A DNA stretch of 64,000 bases from Parabacteroides goldsteinii (GTDB lineage Bacteria > Bacteroidota > Bacteroidia > Bacteroidales > Tannerellaceae). Location: positions 384,473 through 448,472 of the forward strand of contig NZ_JADNBB010000001.1 of NCBI RefSeq assembly GCF_015550595.1, in the 5' to 3' direction. The notes beneath the pieces are model-generated. The model worked only from the letters and a program-made list of their open reading frames with translations, was not told the DNA's origin and ran no database searches. Made by a program: the position numbers and the translations under genes. Positions 35,215 through 45,183 of the stretch are shown here, piece after piece; within the stretch, counting starts at the first letter, position 1, and the number at the start of each line of letters is the position of its first letter.

Positions 35215-36915
35215 ATGAAAAGCAAAATTGATTTTCAGCCCAAACTTATATCGGCGCTGAAAAATTATTCCAAAGAAAAGTTTATGACCGATCTGATGGC
35301 AGGAATCATCGTGGGTATTGTTGCCCTTCCACTGGCCATCGCATTCGGTATCGCTTCGGGAGTAAGTCCGGAAAAAGGATTGATTACGGCAATAATCGGT
35401 GGATTTATCGTTTCTCTTCTGGGAGGAAATTCCGTACAGATCGGTGGTCCGACCGGAGCTTTCATCGTTATCGTATACGGAATTATACAGAATTTCGGTA
35501 TCGAAGGATTGGCTATAGCTACGGTGATTGCCGGAATTATATTGGTAGTAATGGGAGCATTAAAACTGGGGACGGTTATCAAATTTATACCTTATCCGAT
35601 CGTTGTCGGCTTTACCAGCGGTATTGCGTTGACCATTTTCACTACACAGATGAAGGATCTGTTCGGGCTGACAATGGAAAAGGTTCCGGCCGATTTCATA
35701 TCCAAATGGATTGCTTACTTCGAACATTTCCATACGATCAATCCCTGGTCGTTCGTGATCGGAATTATCAGCATTGTTATAATTGCCGTCTCACCCAGGT
35801 TTTCCAAGAAGATTCCGGGTTCATTGATTGCTATTATTGTGATGACGATCATTGTCTATATCATGAGAAATCAGCTGGGTATAACAGGCATAGAAACGAT
35901 CGGCGACCGTTTTACCATTAATGCTTCCCTCCCGCAACCGGAAGCCATTTCTTTCAATATGGAAACAATCAACCTATTGCTCCCCTCGGCATTTACCATT
36001 GCGATGCTGGGTGCGATAGAGTCGCTTCTTTCTGCCACAGTGGCCGATGGTGTGACCGGAGATAAACATAATTCAAATACCGAACTGATCGCACAGGGAG
36101 CTGCCAATATCATCGTTCCTATTTTCGGAGGTATTCCGGTAACCGGAGCTATCGCCCGTACAATGACCAATATCAATAACGGTGGCCGTACACCGGTAGC
36201 CGGTATAATCCATGCTATTGTACTGTTGTTGATCTTACTGTTCTTGGGACCGTTAACCAAACATATCCCAATGGCTTGCCTGGCAGGTGTGTTGATTATC
36301 GTATCTTACAACATGAGCGAATGGCGCACGTTCCGTTCATTGATGAAAAACCCGAAAAGCGATGTTTCCGTACTACTGGTTACTTTTTTCCTAACCGTTA
36401 TCTTCGACCTGACTATTGCCATCGAGATCGGTTTATTGATCGCCATGTTCCTGTTTATGCATCGTGTGGCAGAGACAACTCGCGTTTCAGTAACCAAAGA
36501 CGAAATCGACCTGTCCGATGATGGAGAGATACGCCATGATGAAGAGGTATTGGTTTTGCCGAAAGGGGTTGAAGTGTACGAAATCGACGGTCCGTTCTTC
36601 TTCGGTGTAGCGAACAAATTTGATGATGTGATGAAGGTGATCGGTGACAAACCCAAAGTACGTATCATCCGTATGCGTAAAGTCCCGTTCATGGATTCGA
36701 CAGGCCTGCATAACCTGGAAAGTTTGTTCCGTTTATCGAAAGCTGAAAATATACACATGATCCTTTCGGGAGTAAACGATGATGTGCGCCGTGTATTGAT
36801 CAAATCCGGCTTCGATCAAAAGATAGGTGCGTATAATATATGTTCAAACATAAACGAGGCTGTGAAGAAGGCAGAAGAGGCAGTGGTATCAAAACCTGCT
36901 GAAAATATGCACTGA
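35215..36915 (+). CDS. SulP (SLC26) family anion transporter with STAS domain
   Basis: An inner-membrane transporter for sulfate, bicarbonate or another anion. The membrane part (residues about 25-430) has the family motifs DLMAGIIVGIVALPLAIAFGIASGVSPEKGL and the conserved TGAFIVIVYGII segment. About 12-14 helices are visible. Residues about 450-555 are a cytoplasmic STAS domain with VPFMDSTGLHNLESL, the conserved loop around the phospho-site in related anti-sigma antagonists. The 566 residues are normal for SulP. The anion cannot be told from sequence. It stands alone, divergent from rubrerythrin. Confidence 0.9.
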   Translation: MKSKIDFQPKLISALKNYSKEKFMTDLMAGIIVGIVALPLAIAFGIASGVSPEKGLITAIIGGFIVSLLGGNSVQIGGPTGAFIVIVYGIIQNFGIEGLAIATVIAGIILVVMGALKLGTVIKFIPYPIVVGFTSGIALTIFTTQMKDLFGLTMEKVPADFISKWIAYFEHFHTINPWSFVIGIISIVIIAVSPRFSKKIPGSLIAIIVMTIIVYIMRNQLGITGIETIGDRFTINASLPQPEAISFNMETINLLLPSAFTIAMLGAIESLLSATVADGVTGDKHNSNTELIAQGAANIIVPIFGGIPVTGAIARTMTNINNGGRTPVAGIIHAIVLLLILLFLGPLTKHIPMACLAGVLIIVSYNMSEWRTFRSLMKNPKSDVSVLLVTFFLTVIFDLTIAIEIGLLIAMFLFMHRVAETTRVSVTKDEIDLSDDGEIRHDEEVLVLPKGVEVYEIDGPFFFGVANKFDDVMKVIGDKPKVRIIRMRKVPFMDSTGLHNLESLFRLSKAENIHMILSGVNDDVRRVLIKSGFDQKIGAYNICSNINEAVKKAEEAVVSKPAENMH

Positions 36916-36938
36916 TGTAAGTTACCGATTATTTAGCT

Positions 36939-36970
36939 AAACAATAAATTCAAACCTATTTCTAATAAAA
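36939..36970. repeat. short dispersed repeat, copy 2
   Basis: Exact second copy of aaacaataaattcaaa (36939-36954) seen at 2165, followed by a similar tttctaa stretch, just before a terminator. Confidence 0.35.
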
Positions 36971-37016
36971 AAGGCTGTGCCTGATTCCCCCATGAAAGGG
37001 ATAGCACAGCCTTATT
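36964..37016. terminator. bidirectional terminator between the SulP and GLUG genes
   Basis: Arms 36971-36980 and 37004-37013 (aaggctgtgc / gcacagcctt) form a perfect 10-bp stem with a small inner pairing (tccc/ggga). On the minus strand a run of T (from aataaaaaa) follows, so it chiefly ends the GLUG gene. On the plus strand only ttattta follows. Confidence 0.75.
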
Positions 37017-37033
37017 TATGCCATGACAGCTGT

Positions 37034-38755
37034 TTATTCGCTTATGCGAACTTTATAGCTCTGATCATTCAAACGGACAATGTAAAGACCTTGCGGCAGT
37101 TGTATTTGGGCTTCGCTGGAAACCAGGGCTGATTTCACCAACTGGCCTTGCATATTGAATACGTTCACCTGGGCAGTTGCTTCCGGCTGGATATACAGAA
37201 TACCGTCTGCTGCATATACTTTCTGAGCGGTAGCGTTGATCTCTTCATTGGCTGTTTCCGTATTCTTGACAATGCCATCGATTTTAACGACCATATCGGC
37301 TGTTACCGGTTCTGTCACATAATTCATGTTGGCATCCGGTTCCAGTGTTTTATCGCCAACGGTTACAACCGGTTTGGATTGATTATATTCTTCCTCCAAT
37401 ACCAAAGAGAAACGGAAACGTTCGCCATCTTCTATCGCAGAGACACCTTCGCCCGGCGTGGTTGTTGCACCTGTCAGAAGAGGCAAGGTCACATTATGCA
37501 AGGCTTGAAGAGCTGGGTAATCGTCTTTTCTAAACTGCCAGCGTGTAGTACCTTCAGGCAATAACTTATTAAGTTCTTCTACAAACTCCTCTGCCTTTGC
37601 ATCTTCTTCTTTTAACACATACAAACAGTTTTCTGCTTTAGATTCTCCAAACACGAAAGAAGTAAAAGCAGGTTCAGTAGGAGTAGTTACATTTTCACTC
37701 TTCAACGTTGTTATTGCACTCCACGCATTTGACAGTATACTTTTTGTATTCAAAACAGCTACAACACCTGCTGTATATACATTTGTCTTACCTTCTTCCT
37801 GCTTATTATCAGCTATCGATACAATAGACTCTCCTACGCTTGCAACGTTCATAATTTGACTATTTTGGGTAAAAGCAGCCGTCCCTGCCGTACGAACCAC
37901 CAAATCAGTAGTATTCCCGGAAACCTGGTTGTCCAATTTAACGTGGCTAATACAATCAATAACTTTCGAATCGTACATTTCAGCCACAAGACCTGCGACC
38001 TCAGCGTAACATAATTTTCCATCTTTCAGTACAGTCTCATTCTGATAATTTCCATAAGTACGACAGTTTTCAACTGTACTATTACTTAAAGCTGCAGCCA
38101 AACCACCAATTACCGATCCGGATACTTTTCCTTTAGTCCGTAAGTTATAAGTACCATCTGTTGTACAGTTGATTATCTTCCCATACTGGACATTGGCCGC
38201 TAATCCTGCAGCCATCATTAAGTAATCGGTACCTTCCACGTCAATATCGATCTTTGTACCGACCATACGAATATTTTTAAGAGTTGCCCCTCCACAATTC
38301 ACGAAAAGAGCCATATACATATTACTAGCCTTTTGTGTATTGTATTTCAATGTATAATTCTTTATAGCATAGCCATCGCCATCATACGTTCCGGTAAACC
38401 AGGCTCCGTTACCGATAAAGGTCATCGGGTCATCTTCTCCAAAAGTGATGTCGGCTATTTGCTTAAAGTAAACCCCCTTCAATTTCTGTGGGAATGTACC
38501 CGAATCATCCGAAGACAATGCGCCAAGATTACGTAAATGTTCCTTGGTAGCGATCAGATAGGGATCTGCCTCTGTACCGGAACCACCAGCGAAAGAAGAG
38601 GCATCAGCTTTTGTTTGAACTGGTGATACGACATAATCTAATGACTTGACAGGTTTATCAATCTCCATAGAAGCGAATGCTCCTTCATTTGTTTGTGCAT
38701 TCACACCACACGCAACAGCCAGAAAAGCCATTGCCAAAGTAAAAATTTTCTTCAT
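37034..38755 (-). CDS. secreted GLUG-repeat surface protein with T9SS sorting tail
   Basis: A predicted surface protein of unknown function. The start at 38755 gives MKKIFTLAMAFLAVACGVNAQ, a good signal peptide; an ATG two codons earlier is also possible. Residues about 60-350 contain repeats of the GLUG type (VIGGLAAALSNSTVENC and VAGLVAEMYDSKVIDC), a beta-helical fold seen in adhesin-like proteins. The last 80 residues (VFNMQGQLVKS, then LPQGLYIVRLNDQSYKVRIS) match a type A T9SS C-terminal sorting domain. It lies downstream of the HU-like gene and may be controlled by the invertible promoter, but it also has its own promoter match. Confidence 0.75.
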   Translation of the reverse strand: MKKIFTLAMAFLAVACGVNAQTNEGAFASMEIDKPVKSLDYVVSPVQTKADASSFAGGSGTEADPYLIATKEHLRNLGALSSDDSGTFPQKLKGVYFKQIADITFGEDDPMTFIGNGAWFTGTYDGDGYAIKNYTLKYNTQKASNMYMALFVNCGGATLKNIRMVGTKIDIDVEGTDYLMMAAGLAANVQYGKIINCTTDGTYNLRTKGKVSGSVIGGLAAALSNSTVENCRTYGNYQNETVLKDGKLCYAEVAGLVAEMYDSKVIDCISHVKLDNQVSGNTTDLVVRTAGTAAFTQNSQIMNVASVGESIVSIADNKQEEGKTNVYTAGVVAVLNTKSILSNAWSAITTLKSENVTTPTEPAFTSFVFGESKAENCLYVLKEEDAKAEEFVEELNKLLPEGTTRWQFRKDDYPALQALHNVTLPLLTGATTTPGEGVSAIEDGERFRFSLVLEEEYNQSKPVVTVGDKTLEPDANMNYVTEPVTADMVVKIDGIVKNTETANEEINATAQKVYAADGILYIQPEATAQVNVFNMQGQLVKSALVSSEAQIQLPQGLYIVRLNDQSYKVRISE

Positions 38756-38762
38756 ACTCATT

Positions 38763-38795
38763 CAAAATTAAGTTAGACATATTACTAAATTCAAA
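38763..38795 (-). promoter_or_regulatory. consensus promoter at the start of the GLUG gene
   Basis: Minus strand: TTTG (38792-38795), 21 nt, TAATTTTG (38763-38770), a full consensus match. Its predicted start site (about 38756) falls on or next to the ATG, so the mRNA would have almost no leader. Confidence 0.5.
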
Positions 38796-38830
38796 TATTG
38801 TTTTCAGGCATTAACATATTTTAGGCGCAC

Positions 38831-38913
38831 CGTCTAACCAACATTGGTTAGACGAACTAAGTGCCTCTGGTAAATGTGTGTAAGTACCGTTGGTTAGACA
38901 GTCTCTCCAACGG
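38831..38913. repeat. cluster of inverted repeats sharing ttggttagac
   Basis: An 11-bp perfect dyad at 38831-38854 (cgtctaaccaa, 2 nt, ttggttagacg). A second hairpin has arms at about 38884-38893 and 38907-38916 (ccgttgg / ccaacgg core). The 10-mer ttggttagac occurs in both. They fill the 164-bp gap between the HU-like gene and the GLUG gene, and could end or process the HU-like transcript or act as binding sites. Confidence 0.5.
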
Positions 38914-38925
38914 CACTGAGAAAGA

Positions 38926-39687
38926 CTATTCAATAACAGGACGGTCATCTTCACCACCGCCACCCGGTTTTTCACCTACATAAAGTAGTACCGGAAACTT
39001 ATAAGTACGTGGCTCTTTTACAAGTTTGTTACCGGCTGCAGACTGGGTAACAATACTTAATGTGTATTCGCCATCTTCGAGGGCAGGCAACATCACAGTC
39101 AGTTCAGAAGGATTGTTGTGAACCAGCAACGGACATTTCTGAGCTGTACCGCCTGTCTTAGTGAAGAAAACACCCAGGTTTGCATCATCGCCGGCTACTT
39201 TGATATTCGATCCGGAGATAACGACAGGAGCTGCAGAGGTAAGTTGTGTGTTCATTTCACCGGTAGTAGAGTCGATAATCGAGTTGATGACTGGGCCGGT
39301 AACGGCAGTACGGGTATCTATCTCTACATTCTTCAATGTGTCGCGTAGTAGTTTACCGGGTACATAACTGGCAGTGAGTTTGTTTTTAGTAGGGTCGAAA
39401 GCTGCTTTTTCACCCTCAAAAGAACCAGTGATAGTAGCCATGTACTGGCCTACACCATCAACAACACTTTTACCTTCGGCAATAGCGGTTACTTTTTCCT
39501 GATCACTCATACCCAGGATATATTCGATCGTATCCAGGCGTAATTCAGAACCTCTTGCCAGAATGCGTTCGGCAATTTGTTTGTTGCGTACCGTTCCGGT
39601 GATACGGGGCTTTGCGGTGTAGTCACCTTTACGCTCCGTGACGGCGTTGTCGTAAAGATCGGCAGTCAAAATGATTTTTTCAGCCAT
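38926..39687 (-). CDS. HU-like DNA-binding protein with DUF4469 Ig-like domain
   Basis: Residues 1-125 resemble the Bacteroidetes IHF/HU-like DNA-binding domain (Bvu_2165 type), with AKPRITGTVRNKQIAERI and the later GVGQYMATITGSFEG. Residues about 130-235 resemble DUF4469, an Ig-like fold found behind that domain. The tail is Gly- and acid-rich (GGGGEDDRP). No signal peptide is seen. ATG 39687 is chosen; a TTG three codons upstream is in frame. Function is unknown; nucleoid or regulatory roles are guesses. It is the first gene reached by the invertible promoter if that segment flips, and no promoter facing it is visible in the present orientation. Confidence 0.7.
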   Translation of the reverse strand: MAEKIILTADLYDNAVTERKGDYTAKPRITGTVRNKQIAERILARGSELRLDTIEYILGMSDQEKVTAIAEGKSVVDGVGQYMATITGSFEGEKAAFDPTKNKLTASYVPGKLLRDTLKNVEIDTRTAVTGPVINSIIDSTTGEMNTQLTSAAPVVISGSNIKVAGDDANLGVFFTKTGGTAQKCPLLVHNNPSELTVMLPALEDGEYTLSIVTQSAAGNKLVKEPRTYKFPVLLYVGEKPGGGGEDDRPVIE

Positions 39688-39787
39688 GATTAACAATAAA
39701 TTTATGCCTGCTGGTTGGGCTGGGCGTTTCCTTTTTTGATGATTACCTTATTTGTGAAATAAGGGTAGTTCTTTGTATTGGATATTT

Positions 39788-39902
39788 AGTGGTAGAGAGT
39801 AACTTTTCCCCTTCGGAGAGGGGGGGAGGGGTGTGTTAAAACGAGCTATATAGACGGCTAGTGACACACCCCCTGCCCCCTCTCCAGAGGGGAAAGGTTA
39901 CC
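39788..39902. repeat. dispersed palindromic repeat inside the invertible segment
   Basis: A C/G-rich inverted repeat with arms around 39799-39840 (cccttcggagaggg, ggaggggtgtgtta) and 39863-39902 (gacacaccccctgccccctc, gaggggaaaggtta). This type of element recurs in many Bacteroidales spacers. In a transcript it would fold strongly. Confidence 0.55.
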
Positions 39903-39998
39903 CTTAGCCCCGCTATGTCCATACGTCAGCCGAAAACGCCCCAATTCTTTATAAAGGCACAAATCATCCCCCACCCACCTAAATTATAAGCAAGCAAG

Positions 39999-40031
39999 TT
40001 TGTCTTTGTTTAAATATAATTTCTATCTTTG
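39999..40031 (+). promoter_or_regulatory. consensus promoter within the invertible segment
   Basis: TTTG (39999-40002), 21-nt spacer, TATCTTTG (40024-40031): a full match to the Bacteroidales consensus. In this orientation the transcript would start near 40038 and run antisense to the recombinase gene. After inversion it would read towards the HU-like gene. Confidence 0.7.
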
Positions 40032-40114
40032 CCCCGTCCCCATACTAAAAAGGCTGTGATTTTCAAAGCTGGCATAAAATGGGGCAAACACCCTTATTTC
40101 ACAAATAAGGTCTC

Positions 40115-41044
40115 TTAGGCCCTCACTCCTATCAAACTATCCAGTCCTTTTATAATAATCTTGTTGGCAGCATTGAGCCTCGACTGGTCGAGTGTAGTCA
40201 GATAGTTACGTGTTGTCCTTTCCGACGTATGGCCGAGGGCCTGGCTGATAACTGCTATCGGCGTATCGTTACGCAATGCCTCTGTCGCCCAGGTGTGGCG
40301 GAAAACATACGAAGTCAGATGGATAGGGATGACCAGACGTTGACCGATTTCTTTCAAACAACTGTTGTAATGATGAAGGGCTTTCTTATAGGCTTCATAC
40401 TGCTTCTCCCCATTACTCTCTTCGGACAGAATGGGGAAGAGATAACGGCTACCGGGTTGCATGTATTTATCGAGCAGTCGTTGCATCCCGGGGGTGATGC
40501 AGACACGTACCAGGGTACCAGTCTTACAGCGGTTATAGACTAATTCACCGGCGATAATATTGTCGGCTGTCAGATGCGCCAGATCGACAAAAGGCAGTCC
40601 GCAAGCCAGAAAGGAGAAAAGGGCAAAGTCTTTTGCCATCTCCAACTCATGACTATCCGACAAATCCATCTGCACAATCTCTTCGATTGTTTCCCTACGA
40701 AGGGCACGTTTGGCAGTTTCTCCTTGCCGGAGGTTGAGGTGCGCAAAAGGCGAAAGACAGTTCGACGGTGCCAACCCTTCGCGCACAGCCATATGAAAGA
40801 TGGCACGAAAGCTACTCAGATAGCTGTTTATCGAATTTGTTTTCAGATGTCCCAATGACTGAAGCCATTCACGGAAACGATCGATCAAGCCGGGAGTGAT
40901 ATCGTCAAACGACAGGGAATCATCACCCCGGAACTGCCGGAGCCAGTTGGAGGAAGCACGGTAGAGGTCGGCAGTCGAAAAATGCCCGGCCTTACGTTTA
41001 CGCTTCACCAAAGTGTCGGCATAAGTGAAGAAAAAGGTTATCAT
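40115..41044 (-). CDS. tyrosine recombinase (probable DNA invertase)
   Basis: A site-specific recombinase of the Bacteroidales phage-integrase family, likely the enzyme that flips the adjoining 367-bp segment. The start at 41044 (MITFFFTYADTLVKRK) is chosen because the longer frame crosses the glutaminase terminator. An N-terminal SAM-like core-binding domain is followed by the catalytic domain: KTG near the expected Lys, TSYVFRHTWATEAL with the second Arg, LGHTSERTTRNYLTTL with His and the nucleophile Tyr. The first catalytic Arg, usually in a RGM/P motif before FVD, is replaced: the text reads ACGLPFVD. Its stop lies 3 nt from the right inverted repeat. Confidence 0.88.
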   Translation of the reverse strand: MITFFFTYADTLVKRKRKAGHFSTADLYRASSNWLRQFRGDDSLSFDDITPGLIDRFREWLQSLGHLKTNSINSYLSSFRAIFHMAVREGLAPSNCLSPFAHLNLRQGETAKRALRRETIEEIVQMDLSDSHELEMAKDFALFSFLACGLPFVDLAHLTADNIIAGELVYNRCKTGTLVRVCITPGMQRLLDKYMQPGSRYLFPILSEESNGEKQYEAYKKALHHYNSCLKEIGQRLVIPIHLTSYVFRHTWATEALRNDTPIAVISQALGHTSERTTRNYLTTLDQSRLNAANKIIIKGLDSLIGVRA

Positions 41045-41063
41045 ACAATATAATTTAGAAATA

Positions 41064-41109
41064 AACAAAACAAGCCTCCCGTCCTCTGAACGAGGAACAA
41101 AGAGGCTTG
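41064..41109 (-). terminator. terminator of the gadB-glsA operon
   Basis: Arms caagcctc (41071-41078) and gaggcttg (41102-41109) pair perfectly. On the minus strand the stem is followed by ttttgttt. It lies between glsA and the recombinase start. Confidence 0.75.
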
Positions 41110-41131
41110 CCAATTAAAAGAATAAACTGTT

Positions 41132-42097
41132 CTATTCAGTAATTGTTACCCGGTCGCCATTAAAAATGGACAGACCCAGTTTATTCATTATATATTTGAT
41201 CGCCAACTGAGCTTTCACAGAGTTTCCTGCGCTGTCAATTGGTGGAGCGAAAGCAGCGATACCGAACAGGCCGGGCATTACGCCCATTACACCACCACCT
41301 ACACCTGTTTTTGCAGGGATACCGGAAGTATATAACCAATCACCGGTATGTTCGTAGAAACCTACGGTTGCGATCAGAGATGTGATCTTCGGTGACAATG
41401 AGCCGTCGAATATCTGCTTCTTCGATACCGGGTTCAGGCCGTCGTTAGCAATAGTAGCTCCGCAGACAGATAATTGAGCTGCCGTGATTCCCAGTGAACA
41501 CTGACGAGTATACAGGTCGAGCGACATATCCGGATCGTCGTAAATACGGTTGTAGTTCTTCAATAACCAGGCAATAGAGCGGTTGTTGAAGTTGGTGGCC
41601 GATTCCGACTTATACAATTCGTCGATCAACTGGGGAGCACTGCCGCAAAGATCGGTAATGTTGGCAACAATGGCATCCCACTTCTTGGCGGCGTCACCTA
41701 TCGGCTGAACCATACTGCAAGCAGTGATCGCACCCGCATTGACCAACGGAGTAGAAGGATGATCCTTCTCCAGCAAGATAGCCATGATAGAGTTGAAAGG
41801 CAGTCCGGTTGCATCGGCACCGATCATTTGCAGTAACTTCTCTGCACCGTATTGGCGCAAAGCAAGTACAGCGGTATGTACTTTAGATACAGATTCGATA
41901 CCGAAGCGGTATTCGGAATCACCCAACTGGATGATCGTCCCGTCCATCAGACAGACACTGATACCGAACAGGTTCTTATCTATATTGGCCAGATAAGGGA
42001 TGTAATCGGCATTCTTTCCGTCCGTGTTGGCCTTGTACATCCCATAGGCTTCCTGAGCCGCCTCCTTTATTTGTGAAACGGAAATCTTTTTATCCAT
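41132..42097 (-). CDS. glsA: glutaminase A
   Basis: Hydrolyses L-glutamine to glutamate and ammonia in the cytoplasm; the ammonia takes up protons and the glutamate can feed the decarboxylase encoded upstream. The Ser-x-x-Lys active-site motif appears in ESVSKVHTAVLA, with VNAGAI and the glycine-rich KTGVGGGVMGVMPG near the C-terminus, as in the serine-dependent glutaminase family. The ATG at 42097 is preferred to a TTG two codons earlier, giving 321 residues, close to E. coli GlsA/YbaS. Only 11 nt separate it from gadB, so the two are one operon. Confidence 0.95.
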   Translation of the reverse strand: MDKKISVSQIKEAAQEAYGMYKANTDGKNADYIPYLANIDKNLFGISVCLMDGTIIQLGDSEYRFGIESVSKVHTAVLALRQYGAEKLLQMIGADATGLPFNSIMAILLEKDHPSTPLVNAGAITACSMVQPIGDAAKKWDAIVANITDLCGSAPQLIDELYKSESATNFNNRSIAWLLKNYNRIYDDPDMSLDLYTRQCSLGITAAQLSVCGATIANDGLNPVSKKQIFDGSLSPKITSLIATVGFYEHTGDWLYTSGIPAKTGVGGGVMGVMPGLFGIAAFAPPIDSAGNSVKAQLAIKYIMNKLGLSIFNGDRVTITE

Positions 42098-42108
42098 ACT
42101 CAAATAGT

Positions 42109-43548
42109 TTACTTAGTTGATTTGGGAATACCTGTATGAGTGAAAACAGAACCTTTTACTTTCTGGTTTCTGTCCTGTGCAATACGGGTAGGAGTAGGAT
42201 ATTCCAGTTTTTCCAGATCGGCAATCGCATTGCTGATGTCACCCAGTAACTGGTCGGCCATGTCGCGGCTGAAGCCCTGGCGGACAACGATACGCATAAC
42301 TACCCAGTTTTCAAGGTTGTCAGGCAATGTATAAGCCGGAACCATCCATCCGCTTTGTTTCAGTTTGTCCTGCAAGTCGTACAATGTCCATTTGGCATTC
42401 TTTGCATATTCCGGTTTCAAATACCAGATAAACAATGGGTTCACAACCTCTTTACTGTAGTTCTGGAACGGAGCCATCTTTGCTATTTCAGCATGCAGGT
42501 AATCGGCTACAGCCATACTGTTCTGCTGTACTTCCTTGTAACCCTGGAAGCCGAGACGGATAAACTGGTAGTATTGTCCTAAAATCTGTGCAGCAGGACG
42601 GGAGAAGTTCAAACCGACCTGAGTGATGTTTGCACCTAAATAATTTACACTGAAAGACATGGAACCCGGAAGGTATTTCTTATCTTTCCAAACGACCCAA
42701 CCTAAACCCGGATATACCAGACCGAATTTATGTCCGGAAGTACTGATGGAAAGTACCCATTTCAGACGGAAGTCCCATTTCAGTTCCGGTTTCAGGAATG
42801 GCAGGATGAAACCACCGGAAGCGGCATCCACGTGGATAGGAATATCGTAGCCAGTCTTTGCATTATATGCATCGAGGGCAGTGTCGAGAGCTTCCACGTC
42901 GTCGTTCAGACCTGTCCATGTAACCCCCTGGATAGGAACGATACAGATCGTATTTTCGTCACACATCTTCAGGGCATCCTGCGGGTCGAGCGTGATATGT
43001 TCCTGTGTCAATGGCACCTGGCGCATTTCGATCTGCCACAACTGGGCGAATTTTTCCCATACAACCTGAAATCCGGCAGAGATCACAAAGTTAGGTTTGT
43101 CGACCGGTTTGCCCTGAGCCAATCTCTTTTCACGCCAGCGTAACCAGGCTGCAACACCACCCAACATACACGCTTCGGAAGAACCGATAGCCAAGGCTCC
43201 GGCTTTCCACTGTGCCTGTTCGGGGCTGTTCCACAGGTTAGCCATGATGTTGATACATTTAGCGTTCATCACAGCGATACGCGGGTACTCAGTTTCGTCG
43301 ATATAGTTGATGTTGATTGCTTCGTTCATCAACTTAGTTGCGTAATCGTCCATCCAGGTAGTAACGAATGTAGCCAGGTTCAGACGGGGTTGTGTCTGGG
43401 CGAAAGTTTCGTCTTTTACCATTTGATACGCAATCTCCGGAGTGGTAGGGCCATCAGGAATTACGTCTACCGGAGCTGGATGCAACATTGCATTCGAGCC
43501 AAAAATCGCAGTTTTGGCATCACCTTCTCTAAAACTTGAATCTTTCAT
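42109..43548 (-). CDS. gadB: glutamate decarboxylase
   Basis: Pyridoxal-phosphate enzyme converting glutamate to GABA and CO2 while consuming a proton; a main acid-resistance system and GABA source in gut Bacteroidales. The PLP-binding Lys lies in STSGHKFGLVYPG, and VDAASGGFILPF holds the cofactor-contacting Asp. Its 479 residues are close to E. coli GadB. The C-terminal tail contains a His (VFTHTG), the residue type that in E. coli GadB closes the active site at neutral pH, but equivalence is not shown. The usual glutamate/GABA antiporter gene gadC is not next to it. Confidence 0.95.
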   Translation of the reverse strand: MKDSSFREGDAKTAIFGSNAMLHPAPVDVIPDGPTTPEIAYQMVKDETFAQTQPRLNLATFVTTWMDDYATKLMNEAININYIDETEYPRIAVMNAKCINIMANLWNSPEQAQWKAGALAIGSSEACMLGGVAAWLRWREKRLAQGKPVDKPNFVISAGFQVVWEKFAQLWQIEMRQVPLTQEHITLDPQDALKMCDENTICIVPIQGVTWTGLNDDVEALDTALDAYNAKTGYDIPIHVDAASGGFILPFLKPELKWDFRLKWVLSISTSGHKFGLVYPGLGWVVWKDKKYLPGSMSFSVNYLGANITQVGLNFSRPAAQILGQYYQFIRLGFQGYKEVQQNSMAVADYLHAEIAKMAPFQNYSKEVVNPLFIWYLKPEYAKNAKWTLYDLQDKLKQSGWMVPAYTLPDNLENWVVMRIVVRQGFSRDMADQLLGDISNAIADLEKLEYPTPTRIAQDRNQKVKGSVFTHTGIPKSTK

Positions 43549-43625
43549 GTCTTTTTGTTTTTAATTATTTAAGAATTGGCGCAACCGACATTCGTGCGTC
43601 GATTTGTAGTGCAAAAACAGCCTCC

Positions 43626-43871
43626 ATCGGCAATTGTTCTTCGATTTTGGTTAATCCTGCAATATTTAATTACTTTTGGCTTGATCCAAAAGTAAACAAA
43701 AGATCAAGTCTGCACCTGCCTCGCTACTCCGCATCCTACGTTCGCTGTCGTCTGCGAAACTCGCTTCGCTCAAACAACGCAGCCTCCGGGCGCTCACTCC
43801 GGCTGCTGCGCTTAACGCTCGCCAGCTGAGGCCTTTCCAAGGAAGCTCTGCTTCCTCTAAGGATTGCCGAT
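43626..43871. repeat. dispersed intergenic repeat with 9-bp terminal inversions
   Basis: The gadB-MFS gap (43549-43962) has no gene. It contains a palindrome acttttggcttgatccaaaagt-like element at about 43671-43692, and then a C/G-rich tract of repeated cgct/gctgcg words to about 43830. Exact 9-bp inverted ends, atcggcaat (43626-43634) and attgccgat (43863-43871), bound it. Similar tracts are scattered in Bacteroidales genomes. It may be a MITE-like element. Confidence 0.5.
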
Positions 43872-43962
43872 ACCGATAGTTTTTTTAGTAACGGAAATAA
43901 CCTTTCAAATGAACATTCAGCCATAAGAATTGTTTCCTGTCTTATAAAACAGCTATTTAAGT

Positions 43963-45183
43963 ATGAGAATACAGACAGGACAAGGGACGATTCCCCTTAT
44001 TACATTAATAGGTATATGGTCAATCTCGGCATTGAATGCGCTACCGGGGTTGGCAGTCTCCCCTATCCTGGGAAAACTTTCGGCTATATTTCCGCATTCG
44101 ACGGAACTGGATATACAAATGTTATCCTCTTTGCCTTCGTTGCTGATTATACCTTTTATTATATTATCCGGCAAACTGACCGAGAAGATCAATAATATAT
44201 GGTTGTTACAAATCGGGCTAAGTATTTTTGCCGTCAGCGGTCTCCTGTATCTGCTTTCGACGAAGATGTGGCAACTGATCGCCGTCAGCGCATTGCTGGG
44301 TATCGGTTCGGGGTTGATCGTTCCACTGTCGACCGGCCTTATTTCGAGGTTCTTTATCGGGACTTACCGGACAAAGCAATTCGGGCTGAGTTCGGCTATC
44401 ACCAATGTGACGCTGGTGTTGGCAACCGTACTGACGGGTTATCTGGCGGAAATCAACTGGCATCTGCCGTTCCTCGTTTATCTGTTCCCGCTTATTTCGA
44501 TCGTACTGTCATTCTATCTGAAAAAGAATATCAGCCCCCTACCCGTCCATGCAACGGCTTCTGCTGAAAACAAGGCGGCCCCAACCGATCCTTCATTCGG
44601 AAAACGGGGCATACAGATCAGGCATTTGATGCAAATCATGGGGTTCTACGGGCTGGCAACTTATCTGGTGATTATCGTTAGCTTCAATCTGCCTTTCCTG
44701 ATGAAGGAATATCACTTCACCAGCGGTAACTCGGGTATTATGATCTCTCTTTTCTTCCTGGCTATTATGGCTCCGGGATTCGTACTGAACCAGATCGTCG
44801 ATTATTGCGGGAAGAAAACCAAATTCTACAGCCTGCTCTCCATCGCCCTCGGTATGGCCTTGATCCTTATCTCGCGGACAGAGTGGCTGATCGGATTAGG
44901 TTGTATCTTTACCGGATTAGGGTACGGCGTTATCCAGCCTATTGCCTATGACAAAACAACCCGGACAGCTATCCCGGAAAAGGTAACACTGGCACTGGCT
45001 TTCGTCATGGCGATGAATTACCTGGCTATCCTGCTTTGTCCGTTCATTATAAATGTATTCAAAGATTTATTACATATAGAAACACAGCAGTTTGCGTTCA
45101 TATTCAATCTGATCATTGCACTGATTGCTGCCGTATGGGCGTATATCAAACAGGACTCATTCCTGTTCAATGACAATATGTAA
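43963..45183 (+). CDS. major facilitator superfamily transporter
   Basis: A 406-residue inner-membrane transporter with about 12 hydrophobic helices in two halves, the linker lying around residues 195-215 (charged and Ala/Pro-rich). FIILSGKLTEKINNIWLLQIG fits the loop between helices 2 and 3 of MFS proteins. The direction and substrate cannot be told. It is followed after 23 nt by an EamA transporter gene, so the two may be co-transcribed exporters. It is divergent from gadB across a repeat-filled spacer. Confidence 0.85.
   Translation: MRIQTGQGTIPLITLIGIWSISALNALPGLAVSPILGKLSAIFPHSTELDIQMLSSLPSLLIIPFIILSGKLTEKINNIWLLQIGLSIFAVSGLLYLLSTKMWQLIAVSALLGIGSGLIVPLSTGLISRFFIGTYRTKQFGLSSAITNVTLVLATVLTGYLAEINWHLPFLVYLFPLISIVLSFYLKKNISPLPVHATASAENKAAPTDPSFGKRGIQIRHLMQIMGFYGLATYLVIIVSFNLPFLMKEYHFTSGNSGIMISLFFLAIMAPGFVLNQIVDYCGKKTKFYSLLSIALGMALILISRTEWLIGLGCIFTGLGYGVIQPIAYDKTTRTAIPEKVTLALAFVMAMNYLAILLCPFIINVFKDLLHIETQQFAFIFNLIIALIAAVWAYIKQDSFLFNDNM

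What the first reader, a model, noticed from the sequence alone, without database searches (positions are those of the whole stretch)
39745..40111. Invertible promoter beside a tyrosine recombinase, caught in OFF orientation
Perfect 22-bp inverted repeats enclose 323 bp with one full-consensus promoter (TTTG, N21, TATCTTTG at 39999-40031). The recombinase gene ends 3 nt from the right repeat. The promoter faces away from the HU-like gene at 39687; inversion would place it about 140 bp upstream of that gene, reading into it.
Basis: partly seen in the sequence, partly recalled or inferred. Interest (0 to 1): 0.85.

Follow-up and report, generated by a model that had tools for sequence, protein, structure and literature searches.

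The report
Flip-promoter switch for HU-like gene
A gut Parabacteroides genome carries a stretch of DNA that a neighbouring enzyme can very probably flip over, turning on or off a gene for an unusual DNA-binding protein and perhaps the secreted protein encoded after it; such switches are known, but this target, with an array of hairpin repeats behind it, is little explored.

Summary
Perfect 22-bp inverted repeats enclose 323 bp with one consensus Bacteroidales promoter, 3 nt from the end of a tyrosine recombinase gene; the longest comparable repeat in 60 shuffles was 16 bp. Of 40 fetched loci of related recombinases, 36 carry an inverted repeat at the recombinase stop codon, 35 of them fitting CTTATT-N5-AATAAG. 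Two pairs of corresponding loci in related genomes hold the segment in opposite orientations, one pair being recombinase/HU-like loci like this one. A crude score of 36 segments OFF, 2 ON, 7 unclear. The closest described system is the local Tsr19 switch of Bacteroides fragilis. New here is the target: an HU-like/DUF4469 gene followed by a secreted-protein gene, with palindromic repeats between them. Such repeat-rich arrays follow 38 of 46 HU-like genes against 4 of 53 control genes (the window's own array falls just below that cut). I propose that one flip controls both genes and that the HU-like protein may act at its own array; both steps are inference. No flip was seen at this locus itself.

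The parts
39745..39766 (.). left arm (recombination site), 22 bp, itself nearly palindromic
   Evidence: exact inner 19-mer only at the two arms in the genome; similar arms in 36 of 40 fetched recombinase loci
40090..40111 (.). right arm (recombination site), exact reverse complement of the left arm, 3 nt from the recombinase stop codon
39767..40089 (.). invertible segment, 323 bp
   Evidence: corresponding segments found in opposite orientations in relatives
39999..40031 (+). Bacteroidales-type promoter TTTG-N21-TATCTTTG, pointing at the 3' end of the recombinase gene (OFF for the HU-like gene)
   Evidence: also in the G037, P. gordonii and P. faecis counterparts; activity not tested
39825..39857 (-). 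predicted place of the same promoter after inversion (ON), -7 element 137 nt upstream of the HU-like ATG
   Evidence: arithmetic on the arm coordinates; inference
40115..41044 (-). tyrosine recombinase, 309 aa, probable invertase
   Evidence: PF13102 8e-20 and PF00589 1.9e-11; R249 and H272 in 40 of 40, nucleophile Y281 in 39 of 40, Arg I position R in 0 of 40
38926..39687 (-). HU-like DNA-binding domain plus DUF4469 (Ig-like) protein, 253 aa: first gene behind the switch
   Evidence: PF14848 3e-26, PF14734 1.7e-26; solved relative 4fmr 1.7e-23
38762..38925 (-). intergenic stretch with palindromic repeats (GTCTAACCAACG / TTGGTTAGAC), folding strongly as RNA
   Evidence: z -4.0 over 190 nt; z -4.7, repeat coverage 0.28 over 120 nt
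37034..38761 (-). probable secreted protein, 575 aa, DUF6383 / T9SS C-terminal sorting domain; possible second gene of the unit
   Evidence: PF19910 2.6e-8, TIGR04183 7.2e-8, over its cut-off
39779..39921 (.). hairpin-forming dispersed repeat inside the segment, probably a passenger
   Evidence: I1; 29 matches in the own genome; degenerate in G037

Best explanation
This is a site-specific inversion switch. The tyrosine recombinase encoded at 40115-41044 acts on the two 22-bp arms and flips the 323-bp segment. In the sequenced state the promoter points towards the 3' end of the recombinase gene and I see no consensus promoter facing the HU-like/DUF4469 gene (OFF). In the flipped state it would transcribe that gene and, in my view by read-through, the secreted-protein gene after it (ON). 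Shown: the arms, the promoter match, the gene order, the family-wide arrangement, and opposite orientations in related genomes. Inferred: that this enzyme is the one that acts on these arms, that the promoter is active, that both genes are one transcription unit, and what the HU-like protein does.
For: Arms and promoter far beyond chance. Arms at the recombinase stop codon in 36 of 40 fetched family members (of 58 matches found in 20 of 38 genus genomes), 35 of the 36 fitting CTTATT-N5-AATAAG. Natural inversions: L078 versus L079, both recombinase/HU-like loci, inner segment 82% identical inverted and 45% direct, with matching flanks; L112 versus L113, 82% and 49%. The same recombinase/arms/HU-like order in P. 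gordonii, P. faecis, G037, G004 and G005. The recombinase keeps Arg II, a His at the His/Trp position and the nucleophile Tyr. Described precedent: B. fragilis Tsr19 (BF2766) inverts the promoter immediately downstream of its own gene, and the BF2766 deletion abolished inversion (PMC4747536, passages).
Against: No ON orientation was seen for this locus or the four counterparts with complete segments; the only ON recombinase/HU-like locus is L078, whose HU-like gene is cut by the contig end and whose last 127 bp are shared with another region. The recombinase lacks the canonical Arg I (P151; R in 0 of 40) and has Tyr for the His of HxxR (40 of 40), so activity rests on analogy with IntDOT, where another arginine substitutes (PMC8138268, passages). 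Four of 40 fetched loci showed no arm pair by my criteria. The G005 recombinase of this group is split over two reading frames. Joint transcription of the two downstream genes is not shown; the array between them could stop it.
Confidence: 0.88

Rival explanations
1. The switch's main output is the secreted protein, and the HU-like protein is its local regulator: HU-like gene, palindromic array and secreted-protein gene form one phase-variable unit, and the HU-like protein acts at the array. This extends the best explanation rather than contradicting it.
For: The first same-strand ORF over 140 aa lies 141-236 nt after the HU stop in 20 of the 26 neighbourhoods listed (some are the same locus held twice). 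Of 18 such proteins scanned, 4 had no family; the rest include BspA-type LRR, fimbrillin-like, GLUG, C10 and C11 peptidase, GH120 and DUF6383 proteins. In Treponema denticola the HU/DUF4469 gene TDE_2259 and BspA gene TDE_2258 fall together in one mutant (log2 -5.18 and -5.69; PMC12724145, Table 1 passage). The one promoter match before the window's secreted-protein gene (minus strand, starting at 38795) ends 1 nt before its ATG, too close for a leader, and I do not see it in the G037 sequence.
Against: No expression data for this locus; the array could terminate transcription. In 6 of the 26 neighbourhoods the next such ORF is 524 nt or more away (L151, L156, L163, L164 and the P. gordonii counterpart held as L114 and L077, where a 99-aa ORF comes first). 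One scanned neighbour, after a short HU-like gene (L158), is a VapE-like protein, not a surface protein.
Confidence: 0.55
2. The OFF orientation has a function of its own: its promoter makes RNA antisense to the 3' end of the recombinase mRNA and damps the recombinase, so OFF is self-stabilising.
For: The near arm begins within 20 nt of the recombinase stop codon in 36 of 40 loci, and 27 of 36 segments are called as pointing at the recombinase, 2 away, 7 unclear.
Against: The geometry is also just what a compact local switch gives. Rows are not independent and the orientation score is crude: L085 is called OFF although its only full -7 match points the other way, and other calls rest on incomplete motifs. 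No RNA data.
Confidence: 0.15
3. A relic: arms and recombinase remain but the segment no longer flips in this species.
For: Only OFF seen in the window and the four counterparts with complete segments; non-canonical catalytic residues.
Against: The arms are perfect (22 nt here, 23 nt in G037) while the inner segments of these two are only 73% identical; the recombinase frame is open and 94% identical in G037; opposite orientations exist in the wider group.
Confidence: 0.06
4. Chance or purely structural inverted repeat unrelated to recombination.
For: The arms are palindromic and could form small hairpins.
Against: Shuffles, the family-wide arms and the natural inversions.
Confidence: 0.01

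Closest known systems
Bacteroides fragilis Tsr19 (BF2766) with its local invertible promoter IVp-I
   Same: Tyrosine recombinase whose immediately downstream promoter is flanked by inverted repeats and inverted by it; mostly OFF in culture (1.03% ON in one inoculum); target genes induced only in ON (PMC4747536, passages)
   Different: Target there is an exopolysaccharide operon and a distant second promoter is also flipped; here the first target is an HU-like/DUF4469 gene and no further exact copy of the arm's 19-mer exists in the assembly, though looser sites do. Sequence relation of the two recombinases and their sites was not tested.
Phase-variable glycoproteins of Parabacteroides distasonis (Fletcher et al. 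2007)
   Same: Same genus; phase-variable surface products (seen only as a cited title and a sentence in PMC10773633; the paper is not held)
   Different: Its recombinase, sites and targets could not be compared.
Treponema denticola TDE_2259 / TDE_2258
   Same: HU/DUF4469 gene and a BspA surface-protein gene with consecutive locus numbers, falling together in one mutant (PMC12724145, passages); the G004 counterpart also has an LRR_5/BspA-type protein after the HU-like gene
   Different: No invertible promoter in the passages read; expression depends on TrtA there.
CTnDOT integrase (IntDOT) type tyrosine recombinases
   Same: Canonical Arg I absent, as in this family (PMC8138268, passages)
   Different: Integrase of a mobile element; the protein here sits next to what are probably its own inversion sites. 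Homology to IntDOT was not tested.
fimS / FimB switch of Escherichia coli
   Same: 314-bp segment inverted by a tyrosine integrase (start of the abstract of PMC9993118 in the listing)
   Different: No sequence comparison made; different target.

Membership tests
Bacteroidales local promoter inversion by an adjacent tyrosine recombinase (Tsr type) | tyrosine recombinase gene next to the invertible segment | tested here: met
   3 nt from the arm
Bacteroidales local promoter inversion by an adjacent tyrosine recombinase (Tsr type) | perfect short inverted repeats around a promoter | tested here: met
Bacteroidales local promoter inversion by an adjacent tyrosine recombinase (Tsr type) | promoter of the TTTG / TAnnTTTG type (motif from the finding and recall) able to face a target gene | tested here: met
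   sequence match only, activity not tested
Bacteroidales local promoter inversion by an adjacent tyrosine recombinase (Tsr type) | both orientations exist | tested here: inconclusive
   met for corresponding loci of relatives; not seen for this locus
Bacteroidales local promoter inversion by an adjacent tyrosine recombinase (Tsr type) | inversion depends on the adjacent recombinase | not testable with these tools
   needs a deletion mutant
Tyrosine recombinase | catalytic residues including the nucleophile Tyr | tested here: inconclusive
   K174, R249, H272 in 40 of 40, Y281 in 39 of 40; Arg I position P151, R in 0 of 40; His of HxxR is Y246 in 40 of 40
HU-DNA_bdg / DUF4469 protein | both domains over curated cut-off | tested here: met
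Mpi-type serine invertase system | serine recombinase as the enzyme | tested here: inconclusive
   the adjacent recombinase is of the tyrosine class; a remote serine enzyme was not sought

The most novel reading that the evidence does not exclude
HU-like/DUF4469 proteins form a family of local regulators in Bacteroidales. Each is encoded just before an array of palindromic repeats, private to its locus, and often a surface or secreted protein; each may act only at its own array, as DNA or in the mRNA, and set expression of that protein. Invertible promoters of two unlike kinds (CTTATT-N5-AATAAG arms beside a tyrosine recombinase, and AGTTC...GAACT arms) have been placed repeatedly in front of such units, so one flip turns on a surface protein together with its own dedicated regulator.
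Probability: 0.3. Interest if true: 0.75.

Novelty: new variant of a known kind. Interest (0 to 1): 0.5.

Why it matters
The switch would add a DNA-structuring-type protein to the list of things gut Bacteroidales turn on and off by DNA inversion; the review passages read here name capsular polysaccharides, surface proteins, EPS loci, restriction-modification systems and SusCD orthologs, 'among others' (PMC12632263, passages). The recurring layout of HU-like gene, palindromic array and exported protein gives a little-studied gene family a testable role, and this locus is a simple two-state system in which to test it.

Tried and rejected
Chance inverted repeat: rejected by shuffles, by the family-wide arms and by the natural inversions.

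Inner 58-nt inverted repeat as a dedicated terminator: set aside, because it is a dispersed repeat (29 matches), degenerate in G037, and has no run of U after it on the recombinase strand (read). Its effect on transcription is untested.

Known structured RNA: Rfam gave 0 matches at gathering score over 36000-44000. Anti-phage defence: 0 PADLOC matches for the three proteins given.

Viral contigs: 6 stretches matched a peptide pattern, none a relative of the HU-like protein; 0 exact arm matches. The single genome-contig scan gave 4 loci, none a second assembly of the window's species.

Contig ends as evidence of mixed orientation: G023 contigs C178, C175 and C7 share the same 127 bp at their ends. 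The branch is not at the arm: C175 carries the HU-like 5' end behind a gene that I read as miaA (name from recall) with a promoter facing the gene and no arms found, so it is a second locus or a strain variant and says nothing about flipping.

Rows dropped: 54 flanks were scored; 8 were dropped before the test (6 found only with seeds translated from the wrong strand, 2 internal stops of broken HU-like genes). In one search simple folding separates the groups less well than repeat coverage: z under -3 in 35 of 46 HU-like flanks and in 20 of 53 controls. One alignment used wrong coordinates of mine and was discarded.

Literature: DUF4469 is in 0 held papers; PF14848, PF14734 and related terms in 5, of which I judged one relevant from the listing. 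A 2017 study of HU-superfamily clades in Bacteroidetes is recalled; a text search did not list it and my look-up by a recalled id found nothing held. 'Not described' rests in an open-licence library.

Full report
Observation. The arms 39745-39766 and 40090-40111 are perfect over 22 nt and enclose 323 bp. This is the longest perfect inverted repeat within 1 kb in the window; 60 dinucleotide shuffles averaged 12.8 with a maximum of 16. The promoter match TTTG-N21-TATCTTTG at 39999-40031 is the only one of its kind in the segment (0.01 expected). The recombinase stop lies 3 nt from the right arm. The HU-like gene's ATG, kept in its counterparts, is at 39687.

Setting. The window is part of a 6.53-Mb assembly in 85 contigs. 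The assembly has 37 matches to the recombinase N-terminal family PF13102, 12 to HU-DNA_bdg PF14848 (9 over cut-off) and 9 to DUF4469.

The recombinase family. Searching the genus with the recombinase gave 58 matches at E <= 1e-60 in 20 of 38 genomes. I fetched 40 of the 58 with long flanks. In 36 of these 40 an inverted repeat begins between 17 nt before and 20 nt after the recombinase stop codon, with inner segments of 113-506 bp; 18 arms hold CTTATTT-NNN-AAATAAG exactly, 17 more fit CTTATT-N5-AATAAG, and one differs. The four without such a pair are L082 and L026, which end soon after the gene, L090, which has similar repeats further downstream, and L083, with only a 14-nt repeat overlapping the gene's end. 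The genes downstream look, from the starts of their translations only, like fimbrial, polysaccharide and outer-membrane gene sets in many of these loci (not scanned).

Comparative evidence of inversion. L078 (G023) and L079 (G004) have matching recombinase 3' ends and matching HU-like 5' ends, but the segment between the arms aligns at 82% only when one is reversed (45% otherwise). L112 (G004) and L113 (G005) show the same at another locus (82% and 49%). By contrast the window, G037 and P. gordonii segments align in the same sense (73% and 74% to the window). So segments of this type, one pair with this type of target, have inverted since those genomes parted.

Orientation. A simple promoter score over the 36 segments OFF (towards the recombinase), 2 ON and 7 unclear. 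The loci are not independent and the score is crude; L085 is called OFF although its only full -7 match points the other way. Among recombinase/HU-like loci the window, G037, P. gordonii, P. faecis and G004 are OFF; G005 has one -7 match pointing away and a recombinase split over two reading frames; G023 L078 is ON. Predominance of OFF resembles B. fragilis IVp-I, 1.03% ON in one inoculum (PMC4747536, passages).

The enzyme. The family keeps K174, R249 and H272 in 40 of 40 and Y281 in 39 of 40, but the Arg I position is P, A, T or S (R in 0 of 40) and the His of HxxR is Tyr in 40 of 40; R172 is invariant (positions assigned by reading the motifs). In IntCTnDOT-type enzymes Arg I can be missing and another arginine substitutes (PMC8138268, passages). 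That R172 plays this part here is a guess.

The target. The HU-like protein has PF14848 and PF14734 domains and one solved relative at E <= 0.01, 4fmr. After 164 nt comes a protein with a DUF6383 / T9SS sorting domain. Counterparts are followed by different proteins: a BspA-type LRR protein in G004, a C10 peptidase in G005, a 1155-aa protein with no Pfam family in P. faecis, a relative of the window's own in G037. In T. denticola the HU/DUF4469 gene TDE_2259 and the BspA gene TDE_2258 fall together in a trtA mutant (PMC12724145, abstract and passages). This makes a two-gene unit plausible but does not prove it; 6 of 26 neighbourhoods lack a close second gene by my rule.

The array. After the HU-like stop lies a strongly self-complementary stretch. 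Over 120 nt after the stop, 38 of 46 HU-like genes exceed 30% coverage by repeated or inverted 8-mers, against 4 of 53 other genes from the same neighbourhoods (Mann-Whitney p 1.6e-15). Fold z-scores differ less: median -4.75 against -1.95, and under -3 in 35 of 46 against 20 of 53. The 46 remain from 54 flanks after the eight exclusions given under Tried and rejected; several are orthologues and a few are short HU-like genes without a shown DUF4469, so the p-value overstates independence. The window's own stretch is just below the coverage cut (0.28; z -4.7). Of 24 further DUF4469 loci scored over 190 nt, 9 have z of -4 or lower, 7 of them among the 22 outside the family (L174, L197 and L172 are clear by eye), and several show nothing (L180, L184, L189). 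In the own genome 54 of 55 pairs of such flanks share at most three 8-mers; the exception, L153/L154, encodes HU-like proteins 68% identical, while two loci with 75% identical proteins share one. Across genomes, sharing is common only among closely similar proteins: 12 of 21 pairs at 75% identity or more share five or more 8-mers, 16 of 992 pairs below 60% do. So the architecture is kept while the sequence changes, which points to structure, or to private recognition, as what matters. Which is open; I did not test covariation beyond one small alignment.

Second kind of inverted repeat. In the own genome two further HU-like genes (L153, L154) lie behind AGTTC...GAACT repeats with a promoter match pointing away, as do genes in P. 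gordonii (L161) and G021 (L117); L159 and L160 have related repeats with matches in both directions. I did not show inversion there. That this arm type belongs to a serine-invertase class is recalled only.

Verdict. The finding is real and correctly read. It is a local tyrosine-recombinase promoter switch of a known kind, with an HU-like/DUF4469 target that the papers found here do not describe. The most interesting element lies outside the given coordinates: the palindromic array behind the HU-like gene.

Noticed in passing
window 38762-38925 and 3' flanks of HU-like genes in L116-L167: Palindromic or repeat-rich arrays directly after HU-like genes: coverage above 0.3 in 38 of 46 flanks against 4 of 53 controls (the window's own is 0.28); sequences differ between loci of one genome.
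   Followed up: partly
L153, L154, L161, L117 upstream of HU-like genes: HU-like genes behind a second class of inverted repeats (AGTTC...GAACT, 186-240 bp apart) with a promoter match pointing away from the gene.
   Followed up: partly
window 39779-39921: Hairpin-forming repeat dispersed in the own genome (29 matches, both strands counted), sitting inside the invertible segment.
   Followed up: partly
L075, L076, L077: Mosaic history: against the window, G037 has recombinase 94% and HU-like 72% identical, whereas P. gordonii has recombinase 72% and HU-like 96%, suggesting exchange of one of the genes between species.
   Followed up: no
G000 contig C55, L039 and L148: Possible decayed recombinase/HU-like locus in the own genome: a 160-aa recombinase frame near 167894, an arm-like site at 168806 and an HU-like gene at 171152.
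   Followed up: no
G023 contigs C178, C175, C7: Two different upstream regions, one with recombinase and invertible promoter, one with a promoter facing the gene behind a miaA-like gene (name from recall), end in the same 127 bp of an HU-like gene start.
   Followed up: partly
L020 / L113 (G005): 49-nt arms made of two tandem copies of the palindromic site at each end; several sites per side may give alternative inversion endpoints.
   Followed up: no
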